64,000 nt of DNA, taken from NCBI RefSeq assembly GCF_002775205.1, contig NC_036456.1, positions 5,471,463 to 5,535,462 on the forward strand. Direction: 5' to 3'. The DNA comes from Xiphophorus maculatus. Its lineage: Eukaryota; Chordata; Actinopteri; Cyprinodontiformes; Poeciliidae. The notes under the pieces are model-generated. The model made no database searches and was not told the origin of the DNA. It saw only the letters and a program-made list of their open reading frames with translations. Within the stretch, counting starts at the first letter, position 1. Each line of letters begins with the position of its first letter. A program made the translations under genes and the position numbers. Shown piece by piece: positions 2,842 to 52,023 of this stretch.

Positions 2842-2936
2842 TCAGCACTGTATGTATGTAACAAACTGCTACCTTCTTGTCATTGCTTCCTGCACTACTG
2901 ACGAGTTCAGACGTACGCAAAGCGCTTTTTATAAAC

Positions 2937-6334: not shown

Positions 6335-7625
6335 GGGGGACACACGTTACACCTTTCTTGAAACACTAAACACTTGTAGTTAAGGCAGAAGCTGCATTGC
6401 CATTAACCATAAAATTTTGCAAACTGAAATGACAAAATTAATGTGCTTAATTTAGATTATTCTGTGCTGTCAGTTTAAAACCTGGGTTCTTTGTCTTTTT
6501 TGTGTATCTCTTGTTTTTTGTGATTTATATTTATTAGACCCAAATAATAGTCAATGAAAGTTTCACTAAACAGATTTATTACATTATTTATTCAAATAAA
6601 AAAAAATATTGTCCAAAATATACCTTCTCTTTTATTATAACAATTTTACAGTTGAAGGAAGACATACTTTTTTTTTTCTTTTTTCGCTCAATTTGCATTT
6701 CTTTGAACAACAAAGTTTTATTGTCACTTCTGAGCGACAGAAAGAAAAAAACCAAAATGTTATCAACGAATGGGTGGCCGGAATTGTGCAGAGGAAAATA
6801 CAAGGAAAAAGTGAATTGGGTAAGATTCTGCAACATAGGCAATCAAAAAAAAAAAAAAAAAAAAACATTTTTAATTGATTCCAAAATAAAACAGTGCATT
6901 TATATTACGTTTTCCCTTTTCATCTACATCACAATCATATTCCACAACCCTAAATAAGATTACGAGAAGAAATTCCCAAATACAATCCTCATCTTTTTTT
7001 AAAAAAAATATACAGATTAAGACTTTCTTATGTTAATTTTGTTTCAAGTATTCCAGTTAAGATGTTGCATGTTTTCTTAAGTTGCTGTTGAAATGTTTTT
7101 GACAATAGTGAAGCGCCAGTATTGGTAATCCGATCTAACATTTTGCCTTATATTGGAGCTACATAAGGGGGAAATGTTGCCTAGTTGCCAGTGATCGGCC
7201 TTCACCTCGTCTTTCTTGAACCTTGTTTGCCACATTTGGGGTTTGAAAATTGTTCCAGTTTGGTTTGACTACAGACATGTTAGGTCCGTAGTTACGCTCT
7301 GGCAGCCGTTTCCTGACGTATGAAGATCAACGCTCGTCTGCCTTACATGAATTGCGTGTTTCAAATTTTGAAGAGTGTCTGAGCCACTGAGCATAACATG
7401 ATTCTGACCTGGTGAAACAGGAGGTCATGGATGTTTATTTGAAAAAATAGACTTGTAGATCAACTTTAAAAAAAAATAAAGAATACAATAAATTAAAATA
7501 CATTGGGTCGATTTATTGCCCACGAATTGTTACCACGCCTGCGACACCAGTGATTATTATATTTTATTTTCCCAAAGGTTTTTATGGTGAGAATATCCTA
7601 CCACTCAAGATAACAACACCTGCTT

Positions 7626-8161
7626 TTATACAGCAGATATAATCAGTGGATCAACATTTTTATCATTCGTTTTAGGATGCGGACTGAAATACGGGAAAAT
7701 GTCGTCATTGAACAGACACTCGGTGAACGAGAAAATGTGCGACTTGTTGGTCACGTCGTAAAACGACACGACGGCTTCCTCATAGTCGACGAACACTCCG
7801 ACCTTTTGGGGTTTCTCGTTCAGCGGGAGGCTGGTGGGGGGTACCGTCAGGGCTGCGTACTTCCTGTCTTCGAAATGCACGGCCACCCAGTAACCGTTGT
7901 CCGTGTTGACCTTGAGCACCCCCTTGCGGTTTGCGCTCCGCCGTGCCACGCCCAGATCCCAACCGCTTTTGTTTTTCACCTCTACTTCCCAGTACGACCT
8001 GCCGCGGTTCAGGCGATTGGTCCCAAGGACACTGCCGAACGTGTCGAACCTCTCCGGATCGTCAGGAGCTTTCGGCTTCTCTCCTCCGTCTCTCACTCTC
8101 TTCCCGTCGTTGGACAGGACGAGGCACCGGTGGGCCGTGGCTGAGTCCAGCTTTACGTCCA
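7626..8161 (-). CDS. Gene 1 last exon: PRY-SPRY (B30.2) domain
   Basis: Single 536-nt exon. The acceptor CCACAG at 8167-8162 gives the usual split valine codon, leading into V-D-V-K-L-D. The family landmarks appear in order: LDSATAH (for LDP), SYWEVEV, WDLGVARRS, GYW, VGVFVDYEE, VSFYDV and IFPYFSP. The frame is intact to TAA at 7626-7628. TTTATT on the plus strand near 7560 (AATAAA on the gene strand) would serve as poly(A) signal. B30.2 domains set target binding in TRIM proteins. Confidence 0.9.
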
Positions 8162-11100
8162 CTGTGGTCAGACAGGAAACAGCGGAAGAGTGGAGGGTTG
8201 GGTAAGAGTCACGATGTGGTTAAGAACCAAAATAAGACAAGGATGAGAGAAGCATGATGAACACATTGTAAAGGTCAAGGGAGGTCAATAAACAACAAGG
8301 TTGGCAACAAGAAGAATAATGGGCACAGCCTGAGAAATAACAGAACTACTTATGCTTAGTACTTGAATGCTTTACAGTGGAACCAATTAGCTCAATGGGC
8401 CAGAGAGGTGAAGGGAATATGACTGAGAAACTAATGGGGTCTGAGTAATAGATACAGAACGAAGAAAACACAAGTAGGGCAGGGAATGAGGCCTGAATTT
8501 GGTTTTCACTTTTCTCTGATTTTCTCTTCACCAAAGGGGTGGTGTGGTTAATCACGTGTAACTTATGATATGGCCATTAAATTTCCACACTGGGTCCGGT
8601 TGCCTTACATAATCTTTTTTTCTTCTGTGCATACCTCTGAAAAACTAGCACAGCGCAAAGTTAGCGCGTATAAAAACATGATTTAGCATTTTTCTAACTT
8701 TAAAAGTGGCATCTGTTGAGTCGTTGATAGATGGTGAATATCAACATGGCTAAAGTTAGTGCTTTAGCATTAGCTTCTGCTACGTCCCATGTTAGCATGG
8801 GACATTAGTGGAGCTAATGTTTATAAATAGCTCCTGAAGTTTAGCACCGCTAACTTCTTGTCAGCAGTGCCCACCACTGAGGAAATATTTTCATGAAAGT
8901 TGTATTTGGTATGTTAGTCTTTGTTTGATGCTCTAAAATATATTTTTAATTGAGCAAAAACAGAAGAAATCCAAAAAAAGTACATTATCAAAGCAGTGCA
9001 TGTTACAATTTACATATACATTTTTGAGTACACACACCTGCGAAGGTTGCAATCCTTTTGAGCTCTGTGGAAAAAGAACAGAAAGTGGGTAAAACACAGA
9101 TCCTTAATAAAAAAACAACATATTTTGGGTTTATTCACACCAGCTCTGTTTAGTGAGCTGTAATCAAACTCCTGTTGTTTGCCTAGAAAGTCCAGTTTGT
9201 TTAGAGACGTGTAAATGTTTAATCATGCTGAGACCGACGACCAAAATTGCGTCATTTGGGAAAAAAACAAAGATTCACCGAGGGAAGAGAGGTTTTCCAG
9301 ATGCCACTGGATGTCTTTCATCATGGTAGATGTTGTTGCTTTCAGGGTACCAAAGGAGAAGGAAGTGTCAACTTTTAGATTTTTAATCCCTTTGGAGTCA
9401 TCCAGGTTTGAAAGTGGAACAGCCTGTGTGTTTCAAAGGAAGGAGCAAAGAAGGACGAGAGTTATAGAAACTGAAACGTTTTTCTTGTTTCGCTAAAATA
9501 ATACTAAAAGAAAGGGTGTGAAGGTGGAGGGACTCCTTACCTGCAAGTCTTGGCTTCTGTCCAGTTCATCAATGGAGTCTCTGAATCTATCAATTTCTCC
9601 TTGCAGCTTCTGCAGGAGATTCTGTTCGTCCCTTTTGACCTTTCGTCTCCTAAGAACAGAACACACGAGGCTTTTAGTTTGAGCAAAGCATAGTTGCTCC
9701 ATCAACTCGATGAAATTGGTTTGCTGTCATCTCAAGTATGCGCAACGTTTAATCAAATCCCCATTACGTTAGTTTGTATGCATTTCAGTGGCAAAGGAAG
9801 ATACGATGGCTTAGGAAAATAAACTCCAGCATCGTAGCACGTGTTGTTAGACATGTCCACGTACACAATGGGAAACTTTGTAAAGCATCTCTAAGGATGT
9901 TTTAAAACCAGTGGGTCCCAAAGTGTGAGGCGCGCCCTCTAGGTGGGGCGCAGTGCCATTGCAGGGGGGGCGCGGGAAACGGAATGGATGAATAAAAAGA
10001 AAAAAACAGTTACACAAAAGTGTCTCACTGTAAAGATGGTTTGTAGTTTGTTTTGTTGCAACCTGAAGTGTGAAATAAACTTCAGTGGAGTTTGAAAACA
10101 AAATATGTGTTTAGGTTTATGTCCGGTTGAACAATGTGTGTGCCCAGTTTATTTTTTTTTAATTTTTTGCGGGGGGATTTTATTGTAATCCATAGGGGGG
10201 GCCCAGAAGAAAATCTTTGGGAACCACTGTTTTAAAACTGTTACTGAGATAAACATGGCTAACCTCTTCTCGATCGGCTCCAGAGCTTTCTTCCGAGCAT
10301 CTTCCACAACTTTCATCACCTCTGAGAAGACGCTGTGGATCTGCAGCCATTCAGCATCCAAGCTGCCCTGAAAACAGGGATGGGGATAAACAGTGGGTAC
10401 ATCTGAAAAATCCCAAATCATGTCCAACACGGCAGCAGCATCTGCAGCTCACCTTGCAGCTTTTCACGGCTGATCTGACTTCAGTCATCTTCTTCTCTCG
10501 GATGTGAATTTTCTGCTGTAGCAAGACCTTCATCTTGTCTTGCTGTGCCTTGACAGAAGGTGAAAGTAGATGTAGAAATTTCTTAAGGTTTCTCATGATA
10601 GAAACGGTGGGAATTCACAAAGCAGAGCAAACTGCCCTACTATGTGAAATGGGTTTGCTCCTGCTTTCCAAAGCGGTTTTGCACTAAACACACACAAGCG
10701 CAAAATTTCCTGCAGTCAAAATTGTGACCAAAATGAGTACAAATATTCCCATTTCATCTACAGTTTGCAGGCTAAATTCCATCTTTTAAGGCAAAATTTA
10801 CAGTTTTAGGAAAACCATATTCTGTCACCTCTGGGCGCCATGGACATGTTGTCTTATTTAGAGGGACTTGATGTGTCTCACTGAGAGCTGATCTTACTGT
10901 GACCATTTTCACACCATTAGTCCACTCCCTCGCATGTGTCATTGAGGCACGTCCCATTCACTAAAGTCGGTTTTGCAACATAACTCATTTCATCACTCGG
11001 TGATAAACAGAAGTAGTACGCTGACAACATGCTGCTACGATGGCTTAGGAAACGGGGAAAAGGGAGTAAATTGCCAATGTTAAAACACTAGCCACTATTA

Positions 11101-14100
11101 AAACAACAAGATAAATTCCGAATTCGATCTACGTTCCCACCCTCATCTATGGTCATGAGCTTTGGGTCATGACCTAAAGAACGAGATCGCGGATACAAGC
11201 GGCCGAAATGAGTTTTCTCCGTAGGGTGGCTGGGCTCTCCCTTAGAGATAGGGTGAGAAGCTCAGTCATCCGGGAGGGACTCAGAGTAGAGCCGCTGCTC
11301 CTTCACATCGAGAGGAGCCAGTTGAGGTGGCTTGGGCATCTGGTCAGGATGCCTCCTGGACGCCTCCCTGGTGAGGTGTTCCGGGCACGTCCCACCGGGA
11401 GGAGGCCCCGGGGAAGACCCAGGACACGCTGGAGAGACTATGTCTCTCGGCTGGCCTGGGAACGCCTCGGGATTCCCCCGGAAGAGCTGGAAGAAGTGGC
11501 CGGGGAGAGGGAAGTCTGGGCCTCCCTTCTGAAGCTGCTACCCCCGCGACCCGACCTCGGATAAGCGGAAGAAGATGGATGGATGGATGGATGGAAGATA
11601 AATGAGGGCAACCATGGCAACCAGTTACCCACCAATATCTTGTTAGGCTAACAAATCACATCAGAATGTTTTCCAAAAAATTGTGATAATTCAGGTCTGG
11701 TCGTAGATAGCATGCTAAAAATGTTTTACCTGCAGCAGCCTTTCAGCCTCTCTTTCTCTCTTCTTTTCACTAACTGCATCCTTATGTGTGTTTGTTACAA
11801 TCTGTGAGTCTCCGTCATCCTGTAAAAAGGCAAAAAAAAAAGTTAAGCATAAAACAGTTAACCAGCATTAAAATAAAAATAGAGAATCTGACGTTTATTG
11901 AGTATTGAGAGGACAGTATTACAGTAAAAAAAAGAAAAAAAGAAGAAAGAAACAATAGCCCATTTTGTAAGTCAAAAAAAATCAGATGTTTACAGATGTG
12001 ACCAGCTCTGTCAAGCTTTACATCAACGCACTTTATGAAAATCTACAGGTGAGGCTTTAACTTTAACTTTCCAAAAGTGCAGATCTGTACATCTGTCAGG
12101 CGTGACGTTATATCTGTCACATTACTTATAATAACTTGCATTGCGTTTGTAAAACATTGTGTTTCCTTGATGGCTGCCTTTAATGGCTGTGCAGTTCTAC
12201 TCACCCACTTTACTCTGACACCCTAAATATAGTCTGGCGCAAAAGTCCAACTGTTCTGAGTTTTGTGGGACTAAAATAAAACGCACACTTTTGTATTTTG
12301 GTCTGCAAAAAATGTCAGCAAACCTGGCATCTTTTTTCTTTCACTTCACTTCAGGCTGGAGCTACAAATGGGTGAAGGAAAGAGAAAACTAACTAACTAT
12401 CCATAACAATAACTATCTACTACTATTATTATTTTCAATCATATTTAAGATATGATTGAAAATAATAATAATATTTTAATGTTATAGTAATAATTATTAT
12501 TGTTGTTGTTATTAATACAAAATAATAAGTATAATAACTTTAACATTATTTTTCAATGTGTGGATCACTTGGGCTTTTAAACTTAAAGCTTAATCGCTCT
12601 CACTTGGGTCAAATTGTGTTATAGTCATGTTAAAAATAAAAGCAAAACAGCACCATCTAGTGGTGGTAATATGGCGTAGATTTTGGGTCATTCTGTCTAA
12701 TGACCCAACATAAGGGTTATTACCTCAGTACGCTTAGATTCTTTCATGTTTAAAAGGCATCGTGACAAAGAAACAGCTTTAAGATTTAAATGTAAAGGCA
12801 TTCTTATGTTTTGATGGGTTTTTTTTTTTGGTCAGTATATTTTAGGAGCAGTACACCACATTCAGAATCAAAGAGAACAATATTCTTAACTTCAAAAGAA
12901 AGAATAACAGAAGAGAAGTCAAGTCCTCTGCAGGCGTTGTCCGAGGATCGAGAACCACGGCGGGAAGGTTGTGGAGTCTGAAAAACTACAGAGGGCAATC
13001 AATCGATCGATCGATCAATCAATCAATCAAAATTTATTTGTATAGCACATTTCAGCAGCAAGGCATTTCAAAGTGCTTTACATCATATCAAACACAGAAA
13101 CACAATGCAACATAGGATCAATAATAAAAACACGACATTAAGTCAGGTTCCATCAATAAATTTGTAATTGATTACATTTCAAATGCAATCCTAAACAGGT
13201 GGGTTTTTAGTCAAGTTTGCATCCATAAAAGGTTTACCTGTTACACTCCTACTGTGTTATATGGAACAAAATACCTGTTGCTATTTTTATTCCCCCTCAA
13301 GCTCACAATCACGCAGTTTAAAACGATGTAGACAGCATTTTAATCCGTACACCTCTTTCACTGAATTTCGAGCAGGGACTCCGTCGTCCCTCGCGGATTT
13401 TTTTGTGCAATTCTATGGTACCTGTTAGTGTCTAGAATTTACAGGGTTTGTGTTACGCGCACTGACCCTCAGTCACTCAAAGTTTTTCTTCCGGCACCAG
13501 GCTCCGTACACCTCTCACAGAATTTCGCTCTGGGACTCCGCCGTCCCTCACGGATTACTCCTTACTCACACTAAATGTCGCTACACGTATTTAATGTGTT
13601 GCTTATAAAACTTACTCGACGAGTCGGACTCGGCCAGCAGGATCCGTGATGGTGGAGAGCTCACCAGATCTGTTGACGGGGATGATGCATCTGTCTGCTG
13701 AAAAAAAGTATTGGGGATACATTGTTCAGGACACAGTTTCATCCACAAAAACCAACAAAACTCAAACTGAAAACTTGTTATACCTGGGAACCAAATGAAA
13801 TTGCAGTAGTATTCGAGGTTGGAACCATTTGTTGAGAATTTTTTTCATCTGGTGACATGTTATGACCGTGCCAGTCCTCCATACTTCGTTGGTTCATGTC
13901 CCGTGTTAGGGTTTGAGTCAGCCCATAATTCAGTTGGGTGGGGAAGTTTGGAGACATGAACAGTTTCTGTCAGAGAGAAGTGAAAAATGTTTTGGCTTCT
14001 TAAGTCTCACATTTACCAGTCAGTGATTGGTAGAACTCAATTTACATGTTTGTGTATCAATATCTGGAATTAGCTCTACCTGCTCCTTTGCTGGAGTGTT

Positions 14101-15379
14101 CACAATTGACCAGTTGTTCATTTGATTGGGTTGCTCCAACATGTTGCTCCGGAAGTTCTGGATACTCTCTGGGATCCTTGCTTCTTTTGGCGTGGACCCC
14201 ATCATCCTCTGGTGAGCTCCCAGGCCATGGAAAGCTTCCAGGTTCCCAAATTCTGAAGGTTCTTATTGAGACGCAACAAAAAACTGTCATTTATTTTAAT
14301 CAACAAATAATTAGTTGACTAAATCTTTTTCAGAAACAGACTTTTAAAAGATGCGGCAGAGAATTATTTGGTGATTAGTTGACAACAGAGAAAATTTGTA
14401 AACATCAAGTGTTATTGTAAGCATCCATGATAGGACAACCTAAAGGTCCGATTCTATACAGGAAGTTATGGAAACAGCTTGTCCACCATTTTCTGCTAGC
14501 AAGCTAAAAAATACTGACTGTTCTGCATTGACATGATAGCTGTGTGCAAACTTTGGGCTGGTAAGTTTCTCTAGGTTTAAACACTTTAGGATCAAAGCAA
14601 TAGGATGGGCTATTTTATGTGCATTAAGTCTTATCTCAACACATGTTCAACATGTTGGCACAAAACAGAGCAGTGGCCTTTAGCCATTGGGGTTTTCTTT
14701 ACACACTCACGTGATCTTTCTTTAAAGTTTAGAGGGCTGAGTTAGGTCGTTGCGTTGCCAAGCGACATGATGGTCTGACGAGGTACAAAATGACGCTTGC
14801 TAAAGTATTAGTATCAGAGGACTCTGAAATAGTAATTTGATTTAAACACCTAAGTAAAGGTTTGGTCTTTAATTATTCTCACTTAAAATGTGAAATATCA
14901 AAATCATAACAAAAAACAACTGGACTGAATTTTTCTACGCTAAACATACCGCCTTTGGTTTTTGCTAAACATAAAGCGTGAAAATAAATTTTTGAATGAA
15001 TACATCTTAGCTACAACTAAACCCACAAACACTCATACTGCAGGCAAATCCAAAACGTTTTGGAATCAAGCTGAGGCAGACAAAATGATCATTGCCTATG
15101 TAAAATAATAATAGACAATTAAACGGCTAAACGGTTAATGTGTTTCAGCCATAATGTGAAGCACTTACCAAACCTCAAAGGAGTCTTAAAAATATCCATA
15201 GAGAGGTCAAATGAGCTGATTAGTCTTCGTTGGTTGTAACTTGGTGGAAAGAAAGCAAACTGTTTGCTCTCCGGGATGTGCATTCCCTTGGGTGTGCATC
15301 CCTTCTTCCCCTGGTGAGTCCTCAGGCCCTGGTAAGTGGTAACTTTGGACCAGCCGCAGTGGCAAACCTGGAGACTCAT
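7626..15379 (-). CDS. Gene 1: RING-less TRIM-like protein, Cys/His module + coiled coil + B30.2
   Basis: Spliced model, minus strand, exons: 15379-15169, 14252-14080, 13966-13784, 13697-13665, 12977-12891, 11819-11730, 10548-10453, 10367-10264, 9649-9541, 9423-9279, 9064-9038, 8161-7626. All phases agree and the sum is 597 codons plus TAA. Residues about 1-40 hold a CHCGW...GLRTHQG..GC module, and about 71-100 hold a degenerate copy of it. A Ser/Thr/Gln-rich linker follows, then about 120 residues of coiled coil whose exons match those of the TRIM genes downstream (96-nt, split 213-nt, 145-nt and 27-nt units), and finally PRY-SPRY. There is no RING or B-box exon anywhere between promoter and coiled coil, so it is unlikely to be an E3 ligase on its own; it could multimerise with TRIM partners or sense a ligand. 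Non-coding exons are likely at 15468-15508 and about 17648-17700, under an ISRE. The weakest joins are exons 13697-13665 and 12977-12891. Alternatively, two neighbouring genes have been joined here. Confidence 0.65.
9279..10548 (-). CDS. Gene 1 coiled-coil exons, with an extra intron
   Basis: Exons 10548-10453 (96 nt), 10367-10264 (104 nt), 9649-9541 (109 nt) and 9423-9279 (145 nt) align with the TRIM paralogues' 96-nt, 228/234-nt and 148-nt exons. The middle pair together corresponds to one uninterrupted exon in genes 3, 4 and 5, so gene 1 carries an additional intron (phase 2). That intron holds a hAT MITE at 9909-10229. Heptads rich in K, E, L and Q run through the segment. Confidence 0.75.
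9909..10229. mobile_element. hAT-type MITE in a gene 1 intron
   Basis: The ends are CAGTGGGTCCCAAAG and CTTTGGGAACCACTG, the classic hAT terminal inverted repeats. The flanks repeat TTTTAAAAC, fitting an 8-bp target-site duplication. It is about 320 bp with no transposase frame. A second copy lies at 16565-16913. Confidence 0.8.
11110..11594 (+). mobile_element. LINE 3' end fragment with (ATGG)n tail
   Basis: An open stretch at 11208-11564 encodes the C-terminal end of a LINE reverse-transcriptase protein, with the familiar motifs RWLGHLVRMPPGRLP, RPRGRPRTRW and WERLGIPPEELEE. The non-coding end GATAAGCGGAAGAAG and an ATGG microsatellite tail follow at 11572-11594. It is truncated at its 5' end, as usual for LINEs, and sits in a gene 1 intron in antisense orientation. 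The clade (RTE/Rex or CR1/L2 type) is not decided from this fragment. Confidence 0.8.
12424..12470. repeat. Perfect 21-bp AT-rich hairpin
   Basis: 12424-12444 and 12450-12470 are exact reverse complements around the loop TTAAG. Intronic in gene 1. Probably a tiny MITE relic or a cruciform-prone sequence. Confidence 0.65.
12995..13110. repeat. (ATCA/GATC)n microsatellite plus dispersed repeat
   Basis: A tetranucleotide run of ATCA/ATCG units leads into 'atttatttgtatagcacatt' and 'aaagtgctttacatcatat', a text seen in many fish interspersed repeats. Similar 'gtgctttac/aaagtgcttta' pieces recur near 31025, 52140 and 57330 in this window. Confidence 0.55.
13346..13556. repeat. Two imperfect direct repeats of about 54 bp
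   Basis: 13346-13399 and 13503-13556 both read CCGTACACCTCT..CA..GAATTTCG, then GGGACTCCG.CGTCCCTC.CGGATT. Their starts are 157 bp apart. They are unusually GC-rich for this intron and have no recognised function. Confidence 0.6.
13616..13697 (-). CDS. Gene 1 small exon with two possible donors
   Basis: The acceptor is a CAGCAG tandem site at 13695-13700. Donor GTGAGC after 13665 gives a 33-nt in-phase exon (QTDASSPSTDL). Donor GTAAGT after 13616 gives 82 nt and shifts the frame into a stop in the next exon. The short form fits the full-length model; the long form could make a truncated product consisting mainly of the Cys/His modules. Confidence 0.45.
14080..14252 (-). CDS. Gene 1 exon 2: degenerate Cys/His module
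   Basis: Begins in phase 1, like the second module exon of gene 2, and is in phase with the next exon. The peptide FHGLGAHQRMMGSTPKEARI aligns with YQGLRTHQGKKGCTPKGMHI of exon 1, but the two N-terminal cysteines are replaced (FGN for CHCGW) and the last cysteine is Ser. The fold's metal site is therefore lost while the exon and its splice phase are kept. Confidence 0.7.
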
Positions 15380-15396
15380 GTCAGACAGGCTGGGAC
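15169..15396 (-). CDS. Gene 1 first coding exon: CHCGW Cys/His module
   Basis: The ATG at 15379-15377 follows a 17-nt leader after the acceptor TTCTCAG. The module reads MSLQVCHCGW, then SKVTTYQGLRTHQGKKGC, then TPKGMHIPES. Cys6, Cys8, His23 and Cys28 could form a C2HC-type zinc site; this is an inference from spacing. The donor GTAAGT at 15168-15163 leaves phase 1, identical to gene 2. The initiator sits just before the module in both genes. Confidence 0.75.
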
Positions 15397-15467
15397 CTGA
15401 GAACCCAGAAACAACATCAGTTCTTTCCAGTCACTCGTGAGACCAGCTGCACTGAACCATTATTTAC

Positions 15468-15508
15468 CTTCTCTGTTGGGTCCTTTGATCAAATCTCTCC
15501 TGAAGTTC
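15468..15508 (-). other. Gene 1 probable 5' UTR exon
   Basis: A 41-nt segment bounded by acceptor TTTAACAG and donor GTAAATAA, immediately upstream of the first coding exon. Joined to it, a stop precedes the ATG, so it is read as untranslated. Confidence 0.5.
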
Positions 15509-16564
15509 CTGTTAAAGTGCAATCAGTAAATGTATTATTAAATAGAATTTTCTATAAAGATAGAAATTATCTGTAAAAGAACTCAATTATTTCATGGAAC
15601 ATTTAATTATTTAATTGTATATTTTATAATTCCATAAGATTTAATTATTTATTGATGCATTTAATAATTTTATAGTGCACTTAACTAATTAATGGGAGAT
15701 TTACACACATGTATTTTATGGTATATTTATTTCATTTTGCTGCCTCTCACCCTCCATATTCCAGAGTTGAGTTTACAATATAAAAACGTGGAAGTGTGTG
15801 ATTTGTCTCCCTCTAGTGGTGCTGATTGTGTTGCACAGCTCAAAGCCTTAGACTAAAACTTGTTGCAGACAGTACTCGTTTAAACACAAACTGTAAGAAT
15901 AAAAAAAAATAATACTTTAAAGAGCTACTGAGCAAAACAACGTGTGAGAAGACGAAACCTTACCAGGATCATTGAGGTGAATTAGAACGTAGCATCAGAC
16001 AAGTCTGTTTCTCTTGCTTTGAAATTTGCTTATCAAATGTAAGTGAGTTTATTTACATTTATAAACAAAATGTCGCATCATTATTAAAATACAAGCTGAA
16101 ATTCTTCGTATGTCTGGTAGCCCAGATTACGACGTTACAAAACATTTCAAAGGAACACATGTAGAATATTTTCTCATGGCTAATATTTGAGCTTGCACAA
16201 TGAACTGGATCATGGTGGTGAAAAGACAAACCGCTTACAGCTGCTTCATGTTTGTCAAGGGACTGGACCACACAAGTGTTTGCATATCTAGGTAAATAAG
16301 TAGGCTAACCAACTGCTGGATACATTTCAATAAATATCCCGGCTCTGACCAGATGAGGGCGCTGTGTCTGGACGTTTTCATTTCATGTGGGCTGTGACTG
16401 TCAGGATACAGTTTGTTATCGAACAGTAGCAGGGGGATGCACGCATATGCACGCCGCACTTTTCAGATTTTAATGTGTGAAATGGTTTGAGAGTGATGCA
16501 GCATTTTCCTTGCACGGAAAGTCCTGCAAAGTTATAACTTGGGGGAATAAAAGATATGTTAAGT

Positions 16565-16913
16565 CAGTGGTTCCCAAAGTGTGGGGCGCGCCCCCTGGGC
16601 GGGGGCACAGTGCCATTACAGGGAAGGGCACGGGAAGCGGTATGGATAAATAGTAATAAATAATAAATAAATAGTAATAATAAATAAAGAAATAGTAATA
16701 AAAAAATTACACAAAAGTGTTTCACTGTAAAGATGGTTTGTAGTTTGTTTTGTTGCGCCCTGAAGTGTGAAATAAACTTCAGTGGAGTTTCAAAACAAAA
16801 TATGTGTTTAGGTTTATGTCTGGTTATGTCCGTGCCCAGTTGATTTGTTTAATTTTTGGTGGCAGATGTTATTGTAATCCATGGGGGGCCCGGAAAATCT
16901 TTGGGAACCACTG
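16565..16913. mobile_element. hAT-type MITE, second copy
   Basis: The ends are CAGTGGTTCCCAAAG and CTTTGGGAACCACTG. The flanks TGTTAAGT and CGTTAAGT agree at 7 of 8 positions, as expected of an aged 8-bp duplication. Internal text matches the copy at 9909-10229. It lies in gene 1 intron 1. Confidence 0.85.
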
Positions 16914-17647: not shown

Positions 17648-17700
17648 CTGACGCTGCCTCACGTCGCTGCGCCTCCGTCTGATCTGATGCTCATTCCTCC
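17648..17700 (-). other. Gene 1 probable exon 1 (5' UTR)
   Basis: Donor CAG|GTGAGTG at 17648/17647 in a locally CpG-rich stretch. The upstream limit is a guess, as no TATA box is obvious. Confidence 0.5.
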
Positions 17701-17733
17701 TGTCTCTGCCTCTCCTCTCCCGATTTGGCAGCT

Positions 17734-17754
17734 GAAACCTTTCGGTTTCATTTC
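17734..17754 (-). promoter_or_regulatory. ISRE of gene 1
   Basis: On the gene strand the sequence contains GAAATGAAACCGAAAGG, with the core GAAACCGAAA at 17749-17740 matching the interferon-stimulated response element GAAANNGAAA. A preceding GAAAT gives a third half-site. It lies 92 bp upstream of the exon 1 donor. IRF/ISGF3 binding is known for this motif class; interferon induction here is inferred. Confidence 0.7.
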
Positions 17755-17899
17755 AGCCGACAGAAAGCAGGAAGTATCAGAAAAGCAGCGAGCAGCGTCT
17801 GTTGTTTTTACAAGGCTGTTGGGTTGTTGGACCAAATGCATTCCAATACTTTCGCTCAAAATGTGGCGCTGGTATAGTAAGAATAAAAAGGGGGGGTTA

Positions 17900-29000: not shown

Positions 29001-30633
29001 GTCTTGTCTGGTCAACACCTTATTTTGTTTTTGCTTGTCCCAGTACCCCACTGGGCAGTAACTCAGCACCCCAAACAATTTGAAGAATAAAGCACAAAAC
29101 CTGATGGTATTGTTTAGTTGCAGTTAGATAGAATGCTGGTGGTGAAATAAATCAATAAATTAGCTGAAACCCTTTTAAACAGACAAGGCAGTTTGTTTAA
29201 AAGGTCTGTTTGAAAGAGCACAAGCATCCAGCTAATGTTTACATACTTAGCTGTAGCCACAAGGCAGCTAACAGCAGCTGGTAGCAACTAGAAGAGAGAG
29301 CTGCTTGTGTACTTTCCCGTCTTTGTACGTAGTGGTGACAAAATACCTTCAAAAAGACTTACTGGTCCAGTTGTAAGTTAAAATCGTTCAGCTTTATTCA
29401 ACAGGTGTTTGTCTTTAATGATATAAATGTCCATCTCTTACTTCAACTGCCTTCTGCTCACTTTTCATCCCGTCTGAAACGGTGTATTTGACTGACAATT
29501 CAAAAAAAAAATGTCCTAAAAGCCTGGTGATTAAATAATAGTTAATAATAGGTTTATTTTCAACGTACTATGATAATACTTTACTACGACCAAGATACTT
29601 AATAAAACCAGAAACTATTTCATCCCAGATAAATAAAATTTAAGCAACAAGGTTGGTATATACAGTAATTGGGTATATAATCTTTTACTGTATTTTTTTG
29701 CTCTGTGATCAATTGTCTTTAATAACTGAAGTGTCTTTGACAGCCAAATAATCAAAGCTTAGTGCTTCGTCTTTACCTTTAAAGGTGTGAAGCGTTCCTC
29801 CAGCTGATGGCGTGACTTTGACCTTGTTGCTTTTTGAGAAGAGGCTACAGGAAACGCAGGAGTTACGGAGGAAAAAGGAAACGCTGAGATTTAACAGGAA
29901 TTTGGCTAATTGCTATGTGGGCCAAATTTGACCGTCACATATACCTGACTTGTTCTCTTTTTTGACCTCTGCTGCTGATGTGGGGTTACTGAAGTTTCCC
30001 ATCCTTGGTATTTCTGGGGAATTCTGTCAAGTCAACGGGAGAAGTTTAATTTAGGTGGTAGAGATTTTTCTCACTGAACTGACACTATTACTGTTCAATT
30101 TCCATTTGTATACCTCCTCCTTCCTATGAACTTTCTTTGCGACCGGAAGTGTTTTGTTATCTGGTTGTGGTTTCCAGTGGTGCCTCCAGGCACTCTGCTC
30201 TTCCTTGGGGATCCTCAGCCCCTTCGGCGTGCAGCCCATCATTCCTTGGTGGGTCCTCAAGCCGTGATAATTCGTCATTTTCTTCCAGCCGCAGTGACAC
30301 GTCTGGAGGCTCATGTCTGAATAATAATTTGAACTTTCTGTCCATGACATAATTTCAAGAGTGATTTATCAGTTTTTTAGTTACCCCTCTGCTCAAAAAA
30401 ATCATCTTGAGACACAATTTGGACAGCCCACCGATTTTGACAGCGCTCCGGACTTCCAGCTTGTAACTCAATTTAACGTTTGTCTGTCCTCCGTGATTCC
30501 ACGTGTACTGCTGCTGAGGCTCTGCGATCCTCGTACCCGTCGGTGTGCAGCCCATTCTGCCCTGGTGGACCCTCAGGCCGTGATGGGTGGTCACTCTGGT
30601 CCAACCACAGCAGTGGCAAACCTGAAGGCTCAT
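21730..30633 (-). CDS. Gene 2: Cys/His-module protein with many repeated small exons
   Basis: Spliced model, 20 coding exons: 30633-30432, 30316-30114, 30023-29945, 29844-29777, 28753-28672, 28571-28489, 28298-28071, 27952-27880, 27794-27730, 27182-27021, 26267-26148, 26030-25938, 25291-25208, 24083-24011, 23933-23893, 23807-23721, 23537-23442, 22118-22034, 21946-21900, 21771-21730. Phases agree at every junction and the total is 670 codons plus TAG. The N-terminus has two CHC(C)GW...GLR.HQG..GC modules (about residues 1-40 and 68-108). The middle is basic and Ser/Pro-rich, with PPVPAKR and PPVVPPKR (SH3-ligand-like) and several psi-K-x-E sites (VKKE, IKAE twice, LKME). The rest holds five VKxLAxxF exons, the last ending the protein. 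There is no RING, B-box, B30.2, signal peptide or membrane segment. Exon 1 is probably non-coding, at 32585 and upstream, under an ISRE. I do not recognise the family; a nuclear or scaffold role in interferon response is a guess. Confidence 0.6.
22400..22640. repeat. Diverged duplicate segment, copy B
   Basis: Partner of the segment at about 20440-20640, located in a late intron of gene 2 between exons 23537-23442 and 22118-22034. No open frame is conserved between the copies. Confidence 0.5.
26148..27182 (-). CDS. Gene 2 paired exons with proline-basic motifs
   Basis: Exon 27182-27021 contains PPVPAKRKSLLSF, and exon 26267-26148 contains PPVVPPKRNLRSF. The motifs align (PPV.P.KR...L.SF), suggesting an older exon duplication. 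P-x-x-P-x-K/R is the usual SH3-binding pattern, though binding here is only inferred. The second exon ends in a charged helix-like stretch, ITNHLERANRELK, that runs into the first VKxLAxxF exon. Confidence 0.6.
28071..28298 (-). CDS. Gene 2 longest exon (76 codons)
   Basis: Bounded by acceptor CTTTTAG and donor GTAAAAC, phase 0 at both ends. It begins MNHWLGE and ends in a very basic segment (LKKYKKRRDEKMM) that could be a nuclear localisation signal. An internal ATG at its first codon could start a shorter isoform lacking the Cys/His modules. Confidence 0.6.
30114..30316 (-). CDS. Gene 2 second Cys/His-module exon
   Basis: Starts in phase 1 with D-M-S-L-Q-T, followed by CHCGWKKMTNYHGLRTHQG and MMGCTPKGLRIPK. 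All four putative metal ligands are present (C, C, H, C). It matches gene 1 exon 2 in position and phase but has kept its cysteines. The tail is basic. Confidence 0.75.
30432..30633 (-). CDS. Gene 2 first Cys/His-module exon with start codon
   Basis: Acceptor ATTGCAG at 30642-30636, then AA and the ATG at 30633. The module reads MSLQVCHCCGWTRVTTHHGL, then RVHQGRMGC; an extra Cys is inserted relative to the other copies. Donor GTGGGC at 30431 leaves phase 1, aligned with the gene 1 donor. The donor is weaker than GTAAGT, so its exact position is less sure. Confidence 0.7.
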
Positions 30634-40144: not shown

Positions 40145-43100
40145 TCATTCTTCATCAAATTCAAAGTAATTTCCAGTAGAAATAACCATAGCCTCAGAGT
40201 TCGTCTCTTCCTGTTTCACATGTGGGCTGAGATACGGGTGGAGCTCGTCTTTGAACAAACACTCGGTGAACGAGTAGATGTGAGATTTCGCTGTTACGTC
40301 GTAGAAGGACAAAAGGCCTTCCTCGTAGTCCACAAACACCCCGACTTTATCAGGTTTCTCATCAAGGGAGACACGGGTGGGTGGTGCTGTCATGGCGGCG
40401 TAGTTCTCCGCTTCATAATGTACCAGAACCCAGTAACCGTTTTCTGGGCTCAGCGTCAATTTTCCTCTACGGTCGGCGCTGCCTCTGGCTACACCTAGAT
40501 CCCATCCGCTCTTGTTGTTGACCTCCACCTCCCAGTAAGCCTTCCCAGTAGTCAAGCTGTTAAGTCCCAGGACGCTACCAAACACATCAAACCTCTCAGG
40601 AGAATCAGCCACTTCCTGGTTTTCCCCTCCATCTTGCACTTTCTTCCCATCCGGTGAAAGTACGAGGCGTTGGTGTGCGGTCTCTGGGTCCAGCTTTATG
40701 TCCACTGTCGAGATCAAATTGAAAATATGTTGAGGTCAGTAGTTGCATTTCCATTACAGATGTGCACAAAACTGCAATATTCCACTAAATTTATTTCCGA
40801 AATGTCAAATCAAGCAATTCAGCAGTCAATGAAGACGCAGATATTGTCATTATTTTCAAGACACCTTTAGGGAAAAAAGTCAAACATGTTACGTACCAGA
40901 AAACGTTGGAAGTCTTTTGAGTTCTGCAAAGAGAAAATCAAGTTTTTCCATCAACGCTAGCCATTCTTGTTCTTATTACTATCCCACAATAAAGTCAACT
41001 CTCACCAGTGGAGTCCAGCTTCTTCAGCTCCTGCTGAATTTTTTTAACCATGGTTGTTGTAGTTTCTCTCATGGAGCCAAAAGACAGGCTGGTGTCAAGT
41101 TCAACATCCGTCCAGTCAGTCATGTTATCGTTATCTGACAGAGACGGGTATCTCTGAACAGACACAAAAAAAGACAGATTACCTAACAGACTTCAAAGCA
41201 TCAAAGCTTCCTAGACGTACTTCTTTTTAACATAAATCATTGATAATGACTTTGCAAACCGGTTTACATTCTAAAGTGATTTTCCTCCGACCTGTAAGAA
41301 AAGAATGTGATCTTCTAGTGATGAGATATCGTCTAGTTCTGAGATTGTTTTCTCAATTTTGTTGATTTCGCCTTCCAGCTCATCGTTCAGGTTTTTGGCT
41401 TCTTTTTCCATTGCCTCCCTCCTGCTCTCTAGTGGCTTATGAGCTTTCTTCTGGGCTGCCTCCACAATGGCAATCAGCGCTGTGAAAACCGCTTCGATAT
41501 CCCACCACTCGTTTTCAATCAGGTCCTGGAAACGAGACAAATTATTTCAAAAGCTGCTTTTAGCTCGCCATCTGCCGATGCTTTTCTGTGGCATTTGTTG
41601 CTTTTGGTAAATAATGTTCCAGTGTTGCAATTTCTATGCATCTGGGGTCTCGTTTATAAAACACTGCGTAGGATCAATAGTGAAATGTACCTATGCCCAA
41701 AAGCCAAAAGTGGTGTACACCAAAAAAACGGTTGAATGTGGGCGTGCAGAGGGCAGACCATGAGGCAGAACCTTATGCGCAAACATTGAGGCGAAGCTGT
41801 GATTTATAAAGAGGAAGTTGCTTTCTACTGAGCATGTTTTGCAAAATCTCAATTTCGTATTTCTTCTTTCAGCATATGGCCGTCGTTGACTTTTTGAGTA
41901 AATGAGTGAATAACTTTGGCCTAATTTGCATGAAAACTTCTGGTTTCTGCTCTGACTCGCTTTTAGACCCACATCTGATACAAAATTAGCCTAAATGTTT
42001 TATTTAGCATTTAGGCTAATTCTAAATCCCAGTATGTTCAGACTGAGGCAGACCTTTCTGAGAGAGATTGGTTTTTGTCTTTTATTCCGAGCTCAATTAG
42101 GGTTTTAACAAAATGGCGGAGGAAAGATGCAAGATTTGATCACGTTGACTTTTTATGGTTTCTATTCTCTGACCTGTATTACCAGCTAAAATGCCTCTTG
42201 TGGTAAACTTTAATAAATATGACAGTCTAAAATAAGGTGAATTCTCTCTGACATTTCAGCTGTGAAGAAGAGTTAGTATTAGATCCTTGACTGAAGATTT
42301 TTGCTCCAACAAGCTCTAGATTTTTGGTAATTTTTTCTTGAACGGCTTTTACTTTGGCACTGGTCCTTTAGTTATAGTTGGCTCTTGTACCTACCTTGCA
42401 ATCCTTGAGAGCTTTGTTTATCTCATCCATCTTTGTCTTTCTTATTCCAATTCTGTCTTCTAAGTCCTTCTTGGTGTTCTCCAGTTCAGTCTGTAAAAGA
42501 CAACAAGCAGGCACATTTTCAATGTTTCAGCCTATATTTGCTAAATTTAGCTACTGTTTAACAGTAGCTTGTGTCTCTTAAACCTTCTTTAGAAAATGCA
42601 GAAAGGTCTAAATAGGTAAAAGGTTGTAGATCAGGGGTGTCAAACTCCAGTCCTCGAGGGCCGCAGTCCTGCAACTTTTAGATGTGCCTCTGCTGCACCA
42701 CCTGAACAGAATAATTAGGTCATTAAGGCTCTGGAGAACTGATCTACACAAGGAGGAGGCAATTAAGCCATTTCATTCCAGTGTTTTGTACCTGTGGCAC
42801 ATCTAAAAACTGCAGGTCTGCGGCCCTCGAGGACTGGAGTTTGAGACCCCTGTTGTAGATGAATGAATCAGGAAGTTTAGATCACCTTCTTCTTGAGCCA
42901 TTCCTCTTCCATGGAGACCACTTCATCCTGACCTCCTTCCATACATCGAACACAGATGCTCCGCTGCCGATTCCTACTGTACAGCTCAAGCGGGCGTCCG
43001 TGGACTAGGCAGGCCCTTTCATCCAAGTTCTCCACTGGTTCCACCAGCTTGTGGCCCTTCAGCCTTGGATTCGAATGGTTCTCCAAGTGGTCTGGGCAAT

Positions 43101-43452
43101 ACGAGGCGAGACACACAAGGCAGGACTTTGTCGCCTTCTGCTTCGGCTCCTTGCAGACGTCACACGGTACCTCCCCCGGCGCCCCCGAACTCCTGTTGCT
43201 AATCGCGCTTTTCATCTGCGTGGCGATGTCTCTTAGCACAATGCTAACGTCTGGAGGTTTGTTGAGGTGTTTTTTGCAAAGCGGACACATGTCGTTCACC
43301 CGATACGGGGAGATGCTGAGCTCTAGGCACGTCCTGCAGAAAGAGTGACCACAAGGCGTCGTGACCGGGTCGGTAAATATATCCATGCAGATGGAGCAGG
43401 TTAGATTCTTCTCCAGCGCGGAGTCACTGTTTGGAACAGAGACGGCGGCCAT
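40145..43452 (-). CDS. Gene 4: complete TRIM E3 ligase (RING-Bbox-coiled coil-B30.2)
   Basis: Exons: 43452-42886, 42490-42395 (96 nt), 41525-41292 (234 nt), 41153-41006 (148 nt), 40923-40897 (27 nt), 40704-40145; 543 codons plus TGA/TAA-type end, all phases consistent. The RING is at about residues 19-60 (CSIC...CGHSFCRTC...CPLC). B-box 1-like CDVC...CLVCLASYC...H is at about 96-135. B-box 2 has CLVHG and CVRC, but the first inner Cys is Ser (LYSR) and the final His pair is absent (GGQDEVV), so its zinc site is degenerate. Coiled coil is at about 190-345. PRY-SPRY has LDPETAH, YWEVEV and FVDYEE. The fish TRIM39/bloodthirsty-like group fits best, but I do not assign a symbol. Expected role: cytosolic E3 ubiquitin ligase in innate immunity. 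A 5' UTR exon lies near 45496 with an IRF site upstream. Confidence 0.9.
42632..42852. mobile_element. hAT MITE (CAGGGGTGTCAAACTCC family), copy 2
   Basis: Inserted in gene 4 intron 1 of the coding part, with the perfect 8-bp duplication TTGTAGAT at 42624-42631 and 42853-42860. About 220 bp, closely similar to copy 1. Confidence 0.9.
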
Positions 43453-48992: not shown

Positions 48993-51900
48993 TTAGCTCT
49001 GAATACTCTGACTGAGCAAATATGGAAGACCAAATGCTTCCCTTCCTAATTCGTTTTTTGTGTGCTTTATTTTTGAAATAATCAAAGGCTCAAAGTTGAT
49101 CTCATATTTCATATGCAGACTGAAATACGGATGAAGCTCGTCTTGGAATGAGCACTTGGAGAACGTGTAGATATGAGACCGGGCTGTGGCGTCGTAGAAG
49201 GACACAATGCCTTCTTTATAGTCCACAAACACCCCAATCTTCTTTGGTTTGTCTTTAAAAGAAAGTGAAACAGGTGGAGCTGTCATGGCTGCGTATGCTG
49301 TAAATGGCTTGGGTACGTCACACTCTTCAAAATGTACCAGAACCCAGTAGCCGTTATCTGGGTTTAAAGCTGGTCGTCCCCTGCGGTTGGCGCTGCCTCT
49401 GGCTACGCCTAGATCCCACCCGGTTGTGCTGCCAACCTCCACCTCCCAGTAGGACTTCCCAGTTGCCAAGGTGTTGAGTCCCAGGACGCTGCCAAGCACA
49501 TCATATCTCTTTGGAGAGTCTGCCGCTTCCTGGTTTTCTCCTCCGTCTTTCACTTTGCTGCGATCATCAGAGAAAACCAGGCGCCGGTGTGCGGTATCTG
49601 GGTCCAGCCTCACGTCCACTGGGAACCCAAAGTCGGAAAAGGAACATGCATTTTTCAGAAACAAATCAACAGTTTTTGAGACAGCACGAGAGAAGAAAGT
49701 GAAATGTACCTTCAAACTTTGGGAATCTCGTAAGTTCTGTGAAGAGAAAATTTGGTTTTGAGCCATCATATCAATGATTTGGGTTTCATCACTATAAAGT
49801 GAGGTCTTACCAATGGTGGCCAGCTTCTCCAGCTGCTGCTGAACATTTTCAATCATTGTTGTCGCGGTTTCTCTCATGGAGCCAAAAGACAGAGTGGTGT
49901 CAAGTTCAATGTACGTCCAGTCTTTGGTGACATCCTGGACTGAAAGAGATGGGTACCTCTGGAAAAACAGGTAAAAGAAAACAACAGAGTTAAATTAAGG
50001 ACCATAACCTCTCTACACGATCAAGGAGAAATTATCGTTTATATACATATTTTGATGAGGATTTTGAAAAGCAATGCAAGCTTCAAAGGTAAAGCTTGCA
50101 TTCACCTCTGACCTGAAGGAACAGGATGTGATCTTCAAGTGCCGATATATCGTCTAGCTTTGAGATTGTTGTCTCGAGTTTGCTGATTTCATCTTCCAAC
50201 TCATCTTTGAGGTTTCTTGACTCCTTATTTAACAACCGCAGCTTGTCTTCAAGTGGGCTTAGTGCCTCTGTTTTAGCTGCCTTCACAACTTCGAGCACAG
50301 CTGTGAACAGAGCTTCAATATCCCACCACTCTTTCCCAACATGCTCCTAAAAAAAATGAGAAAAATTATGTTTTAAAAATTTCACTTTTTTCCCCCCAAA
50401 TTAACCTGTTTTTATGATGTCACACAAAAGGTTGGTCAAATATCTTTCTTGAGTCAATACTTCCTGGCGAATAATCGCGTGCCATTAGGAAGCCTGATAC
50501 ACTAACACATACAATAGAGATGACTGAAGACTGGACGATGCCGAGTGCAGTCGGGATTTAATGGTTTAATTAGGATACCATCTTTAGATATTCCTTTTGT
50601 TGAGCAAATCTGCTCCGGCACAGAGCAGGCACCGATCTTCTCAGTATGGTATGCTTGAAATTGTGGAGACGGGACGCAGACTGTTCATTCCCCTTTTAGA
50701 TTTGGCCACGTTTAAGGAAGCCGTGTTGGCGAGTTGGGTAGCAGAATTGAGTGTGGGTTGCGTCTCAAATTCTCTTTGCCGATCCTATTGACTCTTGAAT
50801 GGTGTTTGAATCAACTAGATGTACTGGGAATTTAACAACTCCAACAGCATGGCACTCGAGCCTCATTCTGATCGCCAGCTTGGCCACACACTGTTGTAGG
50901 ATGGCGTCCCATTCGATACTTGTCACTGGCATCAAAACCACTACCAAGCAGATTCAAAAGGTGTTCAATGAAGTTATGTTCAGGACTGCAGGCAGACCAT
51001 TCCTTCATCTTTTCTCCCAAATTCTGAAAAGTTCTGCTCCATAAGGCGAGCATTTATACAGGTTAATAGAATTTGCCCAGGAGGTGTGCAATTTTTCTTT
51101 ATCCTTTTTTTTTTTGCAAGTGGCACCTCAGACTTCAACCAAGGGGTTACCTTTTGACCTCTTTTGTTATACTTGTACCTTACAACTCTTCAGAGCTTCA
51201 TTGATCTCATCAATCTTTGCTTTTCTTGTCATGATTCTCTCTTGCAACTCTGCCTTGGTGTTCTCGATTTGATCCTGTCAAAAACAAGAGCAAATCTTGC
51301 CAAACATCATCTCTGTAATGCTTGAAAAATGTTCCTCTGTAACTTTGACCTCAACTGTTGGTCACCTACACAATTTGAAATTTGTTCAGCATATTGCAGA
51401 AACCTATAATCAATACTCATATGTCTGTAATTGAATCAAAACATTTATACCTTCTTCACTTGCCATTCCTCTTCAGCAGAGACAACGTCCCAGTGGTCTC
51501 CATCCAAACATTGAGCACAAACGCATGTTTGTCGCCTCCTGCAGTAAAGCTCGAGCGGGCAACCATGAGTGGGGCAGGCCCTCGAGTCCAGGTTCTCCAC
51601 AGGTTCCACCAGTTTGTGGCCCTTCAGTCTTTTAGCTGAATAATGGTTCTCCAAGTGAGTCGAACAAAATGAAGCCAGGCACACGAGGCAGGACTTTTCA
51701 GCCTTCTTCTTGGGCACCGTGCAGGCGTCACAACGCACCTCGCCGGCGGCCCCAGTAAACGTCTGACTCAAAGTGTTTTTCACCTCTTGGACAATGTCTC
51801 TCAGGACATTATTCACCTTAGGGGCTTTCCTCAGGTGCGTTTTGCAAAGAGGACAAGCATAATCAACCTGAAATGAGGAGATGCTGAGCTCCAGGCACCT

Positions 51901-52023
51901 CATGCAGAACGAGTGACCACAAGATGTCGTCACAGGATCGTTAAATGTCTCCATGCAGATGGGGCATGCGAGGTGTCTTTCCAGAAAGCAGTCATCTTTG
52001 ACGGATTTGGCCGTGGCGGTCAT
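48993..52023 (-). CDS. Gene 5: complete TRIM E3 ligase (RING-Bbox-coiled coil-B30.2)
   Basis: Exons: 52023-51451, 51274-51179 (96 nt), 50346-50113 (234 nt), 49958-49811 (148 nt), 49736-49710 (27 nt), 49618-48993; 567 codons plus stop, phases consistent. The RING is at about residues 19-60 (CPIC...CGHSFCMRC...CPLC). B-box 1-like CDAC...CLVCLASFC. B-box 2 CPTHG...YCRRRQTCVC...DGDHWDVV keeps more ligands than gene 4 but lacks the last His. Coiled coil is at about 195-345. PRY-SPRY has LDPDTAH, YWEVEV, WDLGVARGSA and VGVFVDYKE-like text, with an insert of about seven residues before TAYAAMTAPP and a longer C-terminal tail than its paralogues. Expected role is as for gene 4. A Tc1/mariner fragment lies in an intron, and the promoter is near 54.3 kb. 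Confidence 0.9.
50560..51060 (-). mobile_element. Decayed Tc1/mariner transposase fragment
   Basis: Minus-strand pieces encode WSACSPEHNFIEHLLNLLG, cf. the D-x-N-PIEHLWNxLG catalytic region of Tc1/mariner, and TSIEWDAILQQCVAKLA, cf. the EWxxIPQxxIxxL C-terminal region. These lie in different frames with missing residues, so it is inactive. Located in gene 5 between the 96-nt and 234-nt exons. Confidence 0.65.

What the first reader, a model, noticed from the sequence alone, without database searches (positions are those of the whole stretch)
7626..15396. TRIM tail joined to a new Cys/His head in place of RING and B-boxes
Gene 1 keeps the TRIM 96/234/148/27-nt coiled-coil exon series and B30.2, but its first coding exon is a CHCGW...GLRTHQG..GC module, not a RING/B-box exon. 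Seen directly: exons, phases and an exact multiple-of-three total. Known: TRIM tails multimerise and bind targets. Inferred: exon shuffling made a ligase-less TRIM partner or decoy.
Basis: partly seen in the sequence, partly recalled or inferred. Interest (0 to 1): 0.85.

Follow-up and report, generated by a model that had tools for sequence, protein, structure and literature searches.

The report
TRIM-tailed fish gene with new head
In what looks like a fish genome, one gene seems to have swapped the usual front end of a TRIM immune protein for a small, unfamiliar cysteine/histidine module shared with a neighbouring gene, which would give a TRIM-like protein that cannot tag others with ubiquitin; whether front and back are really made as one protein still needs RNA evidence.

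Summary
Partly confirmed. The minus-strand gene at 15396-7626 reads as 11 coding exons (1716 nt, 571 aa, open). Its tail is a real TRIM coiled coil plus PRY/SPRY. A DNA model of the window's RING/B-box exons finds none at 7.4-18 kb. Its first coding exon is the CHCGW...GLRTHQG..GC module, unmatched in Pfam and NCBIfam. Corrections: the exact 96/234/148/27 series belongs to two neighbouring TRIM genes; this gene has 96/(104+109)/145/27. The head has five exons, the second a module that lost its cysteines. The adjacent gene (30.6-21.7 kb) carries two modules and no TRIM tail; in the genome search the module appeared only in these two genes. Module and tail show purifying selection (pairwise dN/dS about 0.1-0.3, dS near saturation). 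The junction is the weak link: one bridging exon fits (2 of 300 shuffles as good), but an alternative donor would give a head-only protein. Best reading: an old local exon shuffle that made a pyrin-like TRIM derivative without ligase domains, perhaps interferon-regulated. The kind is known; I found no description of this head.

The parts
17648..17749 (-). Proposed noncoding first exon/promoter area: IRF-type GAAACCGAAA (17749-17740) and a strong donor CAG|GTGAGT (exon end 17648)
   Evidence: Pattern scan: 16 matches in the window against a mean of 7.8 in shuffles, so one site alone is weak; donor score 8.5. Start of transcription not known.
15169..15396 (-). E1: module exon; ATG at 15379; CHCGWSKVTTYQGLRTHQGKKGCTPKG; coding part 211 nt, phase 0 to 1
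   Evidence: relatives at 30633-30511 (66%) and 30314-30186 (67%)
14080..14261 (-). E2: degenerate second module (cysteines gone, GLGAHQ kept); 182 nt, phase 1 to 0
   Evidence: 42% identity to the second module of gene 2, tblastn E 3.8e-5; genome search E 0.0055; weak acceptor score -3.5
13784..13966 (-). E3: 183 nt, phase 0, no relatives found; weak donor (0.3)
13665..13697 (-). E4: 33 nt, phase 0, donor CTG|GTGAGC (alternative donor after 13616 gives 82 nt, phase 1)
11730..11819 (-). E5: bridging exon, 90 nt, phase 0, charged end SEKKREREAERLLQ
   Evidence: Only phase-0 open exon between E4 and E6 at the two thresholds tried; as good in 2 of 300 shuffles
10453..10548 (-). E6: 96-nt TRIM coiled-coil exon
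10264..10367 (-). E7: first part (104 nt) of the 234-nt-type coiled-coil exon
9541..9649 (-). E8: second part (109 nt) of the 234-nt-type coiled-coil exon
9279..9423 (-). E9: 145 nt (148 in neighbours)
9038..9064 (-). E10: 27 nt
7626..8161 (-). E11: PRY/SPRY (B30.2) exon with TAA; AATAAA at 7568
   Evidence: Pfam SPRY/PRY; poly(A) signals
30432..30633 (-). Neighbouring gene 2, module exon A (CHCCGWTRVTTHHGLRVHQGRMGC); end read by eye
30114..30316 (-). Neighbouring gene 2, module exon B (CHCGWKKMTNYHGLRTHQGMMGC); ends read by eye
40145..43452 (-). Canonical neighbour TRIM: 567/96/234/148/27/560, RING present
48993..52023 (-). Canonical neighbour TRIM: 573/96/234/148/27/626, RING pattern present

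Best explanation
An old local exon shuffle joined the 5' part of a module gene (relative of gene 2 at 30.6-21.7 kb) to the coiled-coil/B30.2 exons of a TRIM of the local finTRIM-like array that had lost its RING/B-box exon. The protein most likely dimerises through the TRIM coiled coil, uses its B30.2 to bind a target, and presents two Cys/His heads per dimer in place of ligase domains. It would be an effector or scaffold built like pyrin, or a RING-less partner of the array's TRIMs. Shown: exon anatomy, homology of module and tail, absence of a recognisable RING/B-box, constraint on module and tail. Inferred: single transcript, dimerisation, target binding, interferon control, zinc binding.
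For: Open 1716-nt chain with AG...GT at the internal junctions. Five of its donors (E8, E6, E10, E4, E1) are the five highest-scoring of 460 GT sites in the region, by matrices I wrote from recalled splice consensus. Bridging exon E5 is the only phase-0 candidate at both thresholds tried; as good a candidate in 2 of 300 (strict) or 19 of 300 (loose) shuffles, thresholds chosen after seeing E5. Tail: TRIM_CC, PRY, SPRY; its most similar genome matches by identity are C14 array neighbours at 64, 64 and 56% over the B30.2, against 46% or less for the other matches listed apart from its own exons. dN/dS against array members: B30.2 0.11-0.14 (three pairs), whole tail 0.14 and 0.19 (two pairs, third saturated), coiled coil 0.27 (one pair, two saturated), module 0.11 and 0.15 (two pairs). 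No RING/B-box in 7.4-18 kb by nhmmer. E5 holds no methionine in frame, so a tail-only protein would have to begin inside the coiled coil or use an exon not found.
Against: No RNA evidence. E4 has a second donor (after 13616, phase 1) that joins a possible terminal exon (from 12977) to a head-only protein. Direct phase fit between head and tail has a one-in-three prior. E2's acceptor (-3.5) and E3's donor (0.3) score poorly, though so do both sites of E9, which homology supports. E3-E5 have no relatives, so their constraint is untested. Similarity of E5 to the end of the neighbours' B-box exon is not significant: 570, 100 and 147 of 2000 shuffles score as well. dS is near saturation, so dN/dS is rough.
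Confidence: 0.62

Rival explanations
1. Two transcription units: a short head-only module gene (E1-E4 with the 13616 donor, ending in an exon from 12977) and a separate, headless coiled-coil/B30.2 gene.
For: Alternative E4 donor scores 3.0, the acceptor before 12977 scores 4.2 and the frame closes after a short tail; the E4 extension is 63% GC; AATAAA/ATTAAA sites lie in the E4-E5 interval; no TRIM tail was seen in the neighbouring module gene.
Against: No methionine in frame in E5 and no RING/B-box exon; E5 offers a top-scoring acceptor in the right phase; the tail is under constraint, which needs a translatable 5' end. Seven poly(A)-like hexamers in 1.8 kb of AT-rich DNA mean little.
Confidence: 0.22
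2. One gene with two splice products: a head-only protein and a head-plus-TRIM-tail protein, so that the short form can compete with the long one.
For: Both E4 donors are usable by score (5.1 and 3.0) and each leads to an open continuation.
Against: Pure prediction; no transcript seen. It is a variant of the best explanation rather than its opposite.
Confidence: 0.1
3. Decaying fusion or pseudogene left by rearrangement in a TRIM array.
For: The second module has lost its cysteines; the array seems to hold damaged members, such as the gene at 35.8-33.5 kb and a lone B-box exon at 47.0 kb.
Against: No stop or frameshift in 1716 nt; pN/pS 0.30-0.35 for the B30.2 at dS about 2.
Confidence: 0.06

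Closest known systems
Pyrin (TRIM20, MEFV)
   Same: TRIM-type coiled coil and B30.2 with a non-RING head; pyrin B30.2 chains are the best solved-structure matches of this tail (1.2e-47). Pyrin binds caspase-1 by PRY-SPRY and ASC by its PYD (PMC3400628, passages).
   Different: Pyrin's head is a PYD and it keeps a B-box (B-box recalled); here the head is a Cys/His module and no B-box was found. Pfam found no PYD.
TRIM16 and other RING-less TRIMs
   Same: No RING; TRIM16 homodimerises by its coiled coil and heterodimerises with TRIM24, PML and MID1 (PMC3357404, passages).
   Different: TRIM16 has two B-boxes, needed for its ligase activity; here none was found.
Zebrafish ftr06, ftr52 and btr31
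   Same: Domain swaps by exon shuffling inside fish TRIM families (PMC3137616, passages).
   Different: Those bring in new C-terminal parts (chromodomain, RanBD-CypA, transmembrane; btr31 also lost the end of exon 1); here the N-terminal RING/B-box part is replaced.
finTRIM genes; here the neighbours at 43.4 and 52.0 kb
   Same: 96 and 234-nt coiled-coil exons and a first RBB exon of 555-594 nt as in finTRIMs (PMC2657112, passages; neighbours); the tail of this gene is the neighbours' relative.
   Different: Neighbours have 148 and 27-nt exons where finTRIMs have 154 and 60; this gene has no RBB exon and a split, 213-nt second coiled-coil exon.
Fish B30.2-bearing NLRs
   Same: B30.2 shared with other immune proteins by exon shuffling (PMC2657112, passages).
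   Different: NACHT/LRR head, no TRIM coiled coil (recalled).

Membership tests
TRIM (RBCC) family | RING domain | tested here: not met
   No Pfam RING in the 571-aa model, while the 43.4-kb neighbour passes several RING cut-offs; no RING/B-box exon in 7.4-18 kb
TRIM (RBCC) family | B-box, kept by the RING-less members that Sardiello et al. accept (PMC2533329 passages) | tested here: not met
   nhmmer finds none here but finds five exons elsewhere, three of them its sources; Pfam also none, but Pfam is a weak test, since the neighbour's B-box scores below cut-off too
TRIM (RBCC) family | TRIM-type coiled coil | tested here: met
   PF25600 TRIM_CC, 2.2e-15, residues 250-377
TRIM (RBCC) family | Class IV C-terminus (PRY/SPRY) | tested here: met
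   PF13765 and PF00622 above their cut-offs
TRIM (RBCC) family | Descent of the tail from established TRIM genes | tested here: met
   64, 64 and 56% identity to three array neighbours, homologous exons; no tree was built
TRIM (RBCC) family | E3 ligase activity | not testable with these tools
   Bench assay needed
finTRIM | 555-594-nt RBB exon followed by 96 and 234-nt exons | tested here: not met
   RBB exon absent; 96, then 104+109. The neighbours at 43.4 and 52.0 kb do meet it
Pyrin (TRIM20) | PYD head | tested here: not met
   Pfam scan of the whole model up to E 10 lists four families, no PYD
Pyrin (TRIM20) | B-box between head and coiled coil (feature recalled) | tested here: not met
   with the limit named above
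Known zinc-finger families | Match to a catalogued zinc-finger profile | tested here: not met
   No Pfam hit on the module in this gene or on gene 2 modules A and B (E up to 10, but HMMER's filters drop most matches above 0.1); none in NCBIfam for two modules at E up to 1
Known zinc-finger families | Zinc binding or a zinc-finger fold | tested here: inconclusive
   AlphaFold model from four rows has mean pLDDT 46.7; a second job failed. PDB by sequence: one chance hit, E 0.62, not a zinc finger

The most novel reading that the evidence does not exclude
The CxCGW-x7-GLRTHQ-x4-GC module is an uncatalogued Cys/His domain of a small interferon-regulated fish gene family, and one member captured a TRIM coiled coil and B30.2. 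That would be a second, independent pyrin-like invention: a TRIM receptor tail driving a non-ubiquitin effector head, possibly with a head-only splice form as its own competitor.
Probability: 0.3. Interest if true: 0.75.

Novelty: new variant of a known kind. Interest (0 to 1): 0.52.

Why it matters
Pyrin shows that a TRIM tail with a new head can become an immune sensor. A second such swap with a different head, kept by selection beside its likely donor family, would let one ask directly what a TRIM coiled coil and B30.2 do without ubiquitin ligation, and would give a handle on an undescribed Cys/His domain.

Tried and rejected
Rejected: a recognisable RING/B-box exon hidden in the introns. 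Rejected: the module as a widely dispersed repeat: in the own genome two module queries gave 3 matches (E up to 1) and 5 matches (E up to 10), all in this window except one at E 8.4; the pieces of gene 2 and of E3-E5 that I searched matched only themselves. Such counts are lower bounds by the tool's own words. Not supported: E5 as the trimmed end of the old B-box exon. Dropped: a faint B30.2-like stretch at 20508-20447 (E 0.51).

Led nowhere: module search in viral contigs (35 stretches matched a pattern, none confirmed) and genome contigs (3, none confirmed), collections not expected to hold fish; text search for two motif strings gave 7 papers, all for chcgw, none for glrthqg, seen as a listing only; the fold model of the module is unusable. 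No other fish genome could be searched, so orthology was not tested. I have a vague recollection of similar predicted fish proteins; no call supports it.

Rows dropped: the gene 2 module A slice was one codon out of register, so its rows are not used; the 35.8-kb gene was first given a wrong exon end and read out of frame, so its row there is not used except for exon lengths after the first; its tail was read. Fifteen scripts were run in all.

Full report
The window lies in a 704-Mb genome of 101 contigs, on contig C14. The genes discussed are all on the minus strand.

Anatomy. I built the gene by eye and checked it by script. E1 15379-15169 (ATG, 211 nt), E2 14261-14080 (182), E3 13966-13784 (183), E4 13697-13665 (33), E5 11819-11730 (90), E6 10548-10453 (96), E7 10367-10264 (104), E8 9649-9541 (109), E9 9423-9279 (145), E10 9064-9038 (27), E11 8161-7626 (536, with TAA). 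Internal junctions are AG...GT; the sum is 1716 nt with no internal stop.

Tail. Pfam finds TRIM_CC, PRY and SPRY. In the own genome the tail query gave 113 matches from 119 scored of 403 candidates. By identity the nearest after its own exons are three C14 array members at 64, 64 and 56% over the B30.2; the other listed matches are at 46% or less. By E-value two C4 matches that cover the whole tail in one piece (38-39%) rank between these; matches of this intronless-looking kind on C4 and C6 lie at 36-39%. Among solved structures 85 distinct sequences match at E 1e-10 or better, pyrin chains first (1.2e-47), then TRIM21.

Missing domains. A DNA profile of three window RING/B-box exons finds its own three sources plus stretches at 47.0 and 57.2 kb, but in 7400-18000 only chance scores (best E 0.2). 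Pfam agrees, but for the B-box it is a poor witness, since it scores the intact neighbour's B-box below cut-off as well. Given the divergence of this gene from the array (dS about 2), an unconstrained relic would no longer be recognisable, so deletion and decay cannot be told apart.

Head. E1 carries CHCGWSKVTTYQGLRTHQGKKGC. Two copies stand at the start of the next module gene at 30633 and 30314 (66 and 67% identity), in two exons that I read as phases 0-1 and 1-0, like E1 and E2 here (202+203 nt counted by hand, against 211+182). E2 is thus a second module that has lost its cysteines. Gene 2 continues with short open stretches bearing two PxxPxKR motifs and repeats of the form VKxLAxxFS down to 21.73 kb, and I saw no TRIM tail there (exon limits are my reading); a joined 253-aa piece has no Pfam match. 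In the genome one module query gave 3 matches of 4 scored, a second 5 of 5, the fifth outside the window at E 8.4 with a stop; such counts are lower bounds. Nothing in Pfam or NCBIfam matches the module, and PDB gives one chance hit. Its spacing of Cys and His suggests a small C2HC zinc finger; this is a guess from the sequence, and the fold model is too poor to help.

Selection. By the Nei-Gojobori count (own script), B30.2 dN/dS is 0.13, 0.14 and 0.11 against the three array genes. The coiled coil gives 0.27 in the one pair that is not saturated, and the E1 module 0.15 and 0.11 against the two modules of gene 2. dS in the usable pairs is 1.5-2.5, near saturation. pN/pS is 0.30-0.35 for the B30.2, 0.30-0.31 for the module and 0.49-0.55 for the coiled coil. 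For the degenerate E2 one pair gives 0.45 and another is saturated. E3-E5 could not be tested, having no relatives. So module and tail have both been kept for a long time; this is hard to square with a dead fusion, but it does not by itself prove that they are one gene.

Junction. This is the weak point. By splice matrices that I wrote from recalled consensus, E4 ends with a donor ranking fourth of 460 GT sites, and E5 opens with an acceptor tied for the best of 489 AG sites. Between E4 and E6, E5 is the only open phase-0 exon at strict or loose thresholds; 2 and 19 of 300 dinucleotide shuffles hold one as good (thresholds set after seeing E5). Against this, E4 has another donor after 13616 in phase 1. 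From there no open bridging exon reaches E6 at two thresholds, but an exon from 12977 closes the frame and would give a head-only protein. I put the single fused transcript, with or without a head-only form, at about 0.7.

Regulation. A noncoding first exon is plausible for both module genes: an IRF-type GAAAC[C/T]GAAA at 17749-17740 and 32682-32673 stands about 90 nt before good donors at 17648 and 32585. The window has 16 GAAANNGAAA sites against a shuffle mean of 7.8 (1 of 100 shuffles reaches 16), so each site alone is weak; the shared geometry in the two module genes is suggestive only.

Mechanism. TRIM coiled coils self-associate and B30.2 domains bind targets (family knowledge). Without RING and B-box no ubiquitin ligation is expected from this chain. 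TRIM16 shows that a RING-less TRIM can pair with ligase-bearing ones (PMC3357404, passages), and Sardiello et al. suggest a regulator role by hetero-interaction for RING-less members (PMC2533329, passages). Against a simple decoy view, FTR82 showed no dominant negative effect on FTR83 (PMC5445110, passages). Pyrin is the closer model: B30.2 and a non-RING head each bind a partner (PMC3400628, passages). I therefore favour an effector-head receptor over a pure decoy, by inference.

Literature. Fish TRIM domain gains in print that I saw are C-terminal (PMC3137616, passages). Seven searches aimed at such a swap, at RING-less TRIMs, at pyrin or at the motif listed no paper whose title or abstract start describes it; one search showed 20 of 40 papers. 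The library lacks most subscription journals, and I read passages, not whole papers.

Noticed in passing
window 30633-21733, minus strand: Second module gene: two Cys/His modules, then PxxPxKR motifs and repeats like VKELAQMFS; the joined pieces that I searched match only themselves in the genome at E up to 1.
   Followed up: partly
window 35845-33506, minus strand: Array TRIM that seems to have lost its RING while its B-box exon (Pfam B-box match below cut-off), coiled-coil and B30.2 exons stay open: RING loss may have happened more than once in this array.
   Followed up: partly
window 47042-46680, minus strand: Lone, closely similar copy of the B-box exon of the 35.8-kb gene with no tail seen after it.
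   Followed up: no
window 10263-9650 and about 16905-16570: The extra intron inside the 234-type coiled-coil exon holds an element with ends like CAGTGGTTCCCAAAG, also seen at 16.9-16.6 kb; it looks like a hAT-type MITE flanked by a TTTTAAAA-like duplication (read by eye; label recalled).
   Followed up: no
window 2862-4085, plus strand: A 408-codon stop-free frame that looks like a long coiled-coil protein, perhaps an intronless gene.
   Followed up: no
window 57326-55415, minus strand: A further, more distant RING/B-box gene with coiled-coil-like sequence; no B30.2 exon seen for it with the array profile.
   Followed up: no
genome contigs C4 and C6: Intronless-looking TRIM copies (open frames of 435-620 aa covering coiled coil and B30.2 in one piece), possibly retrogenes.
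   Followed up: no
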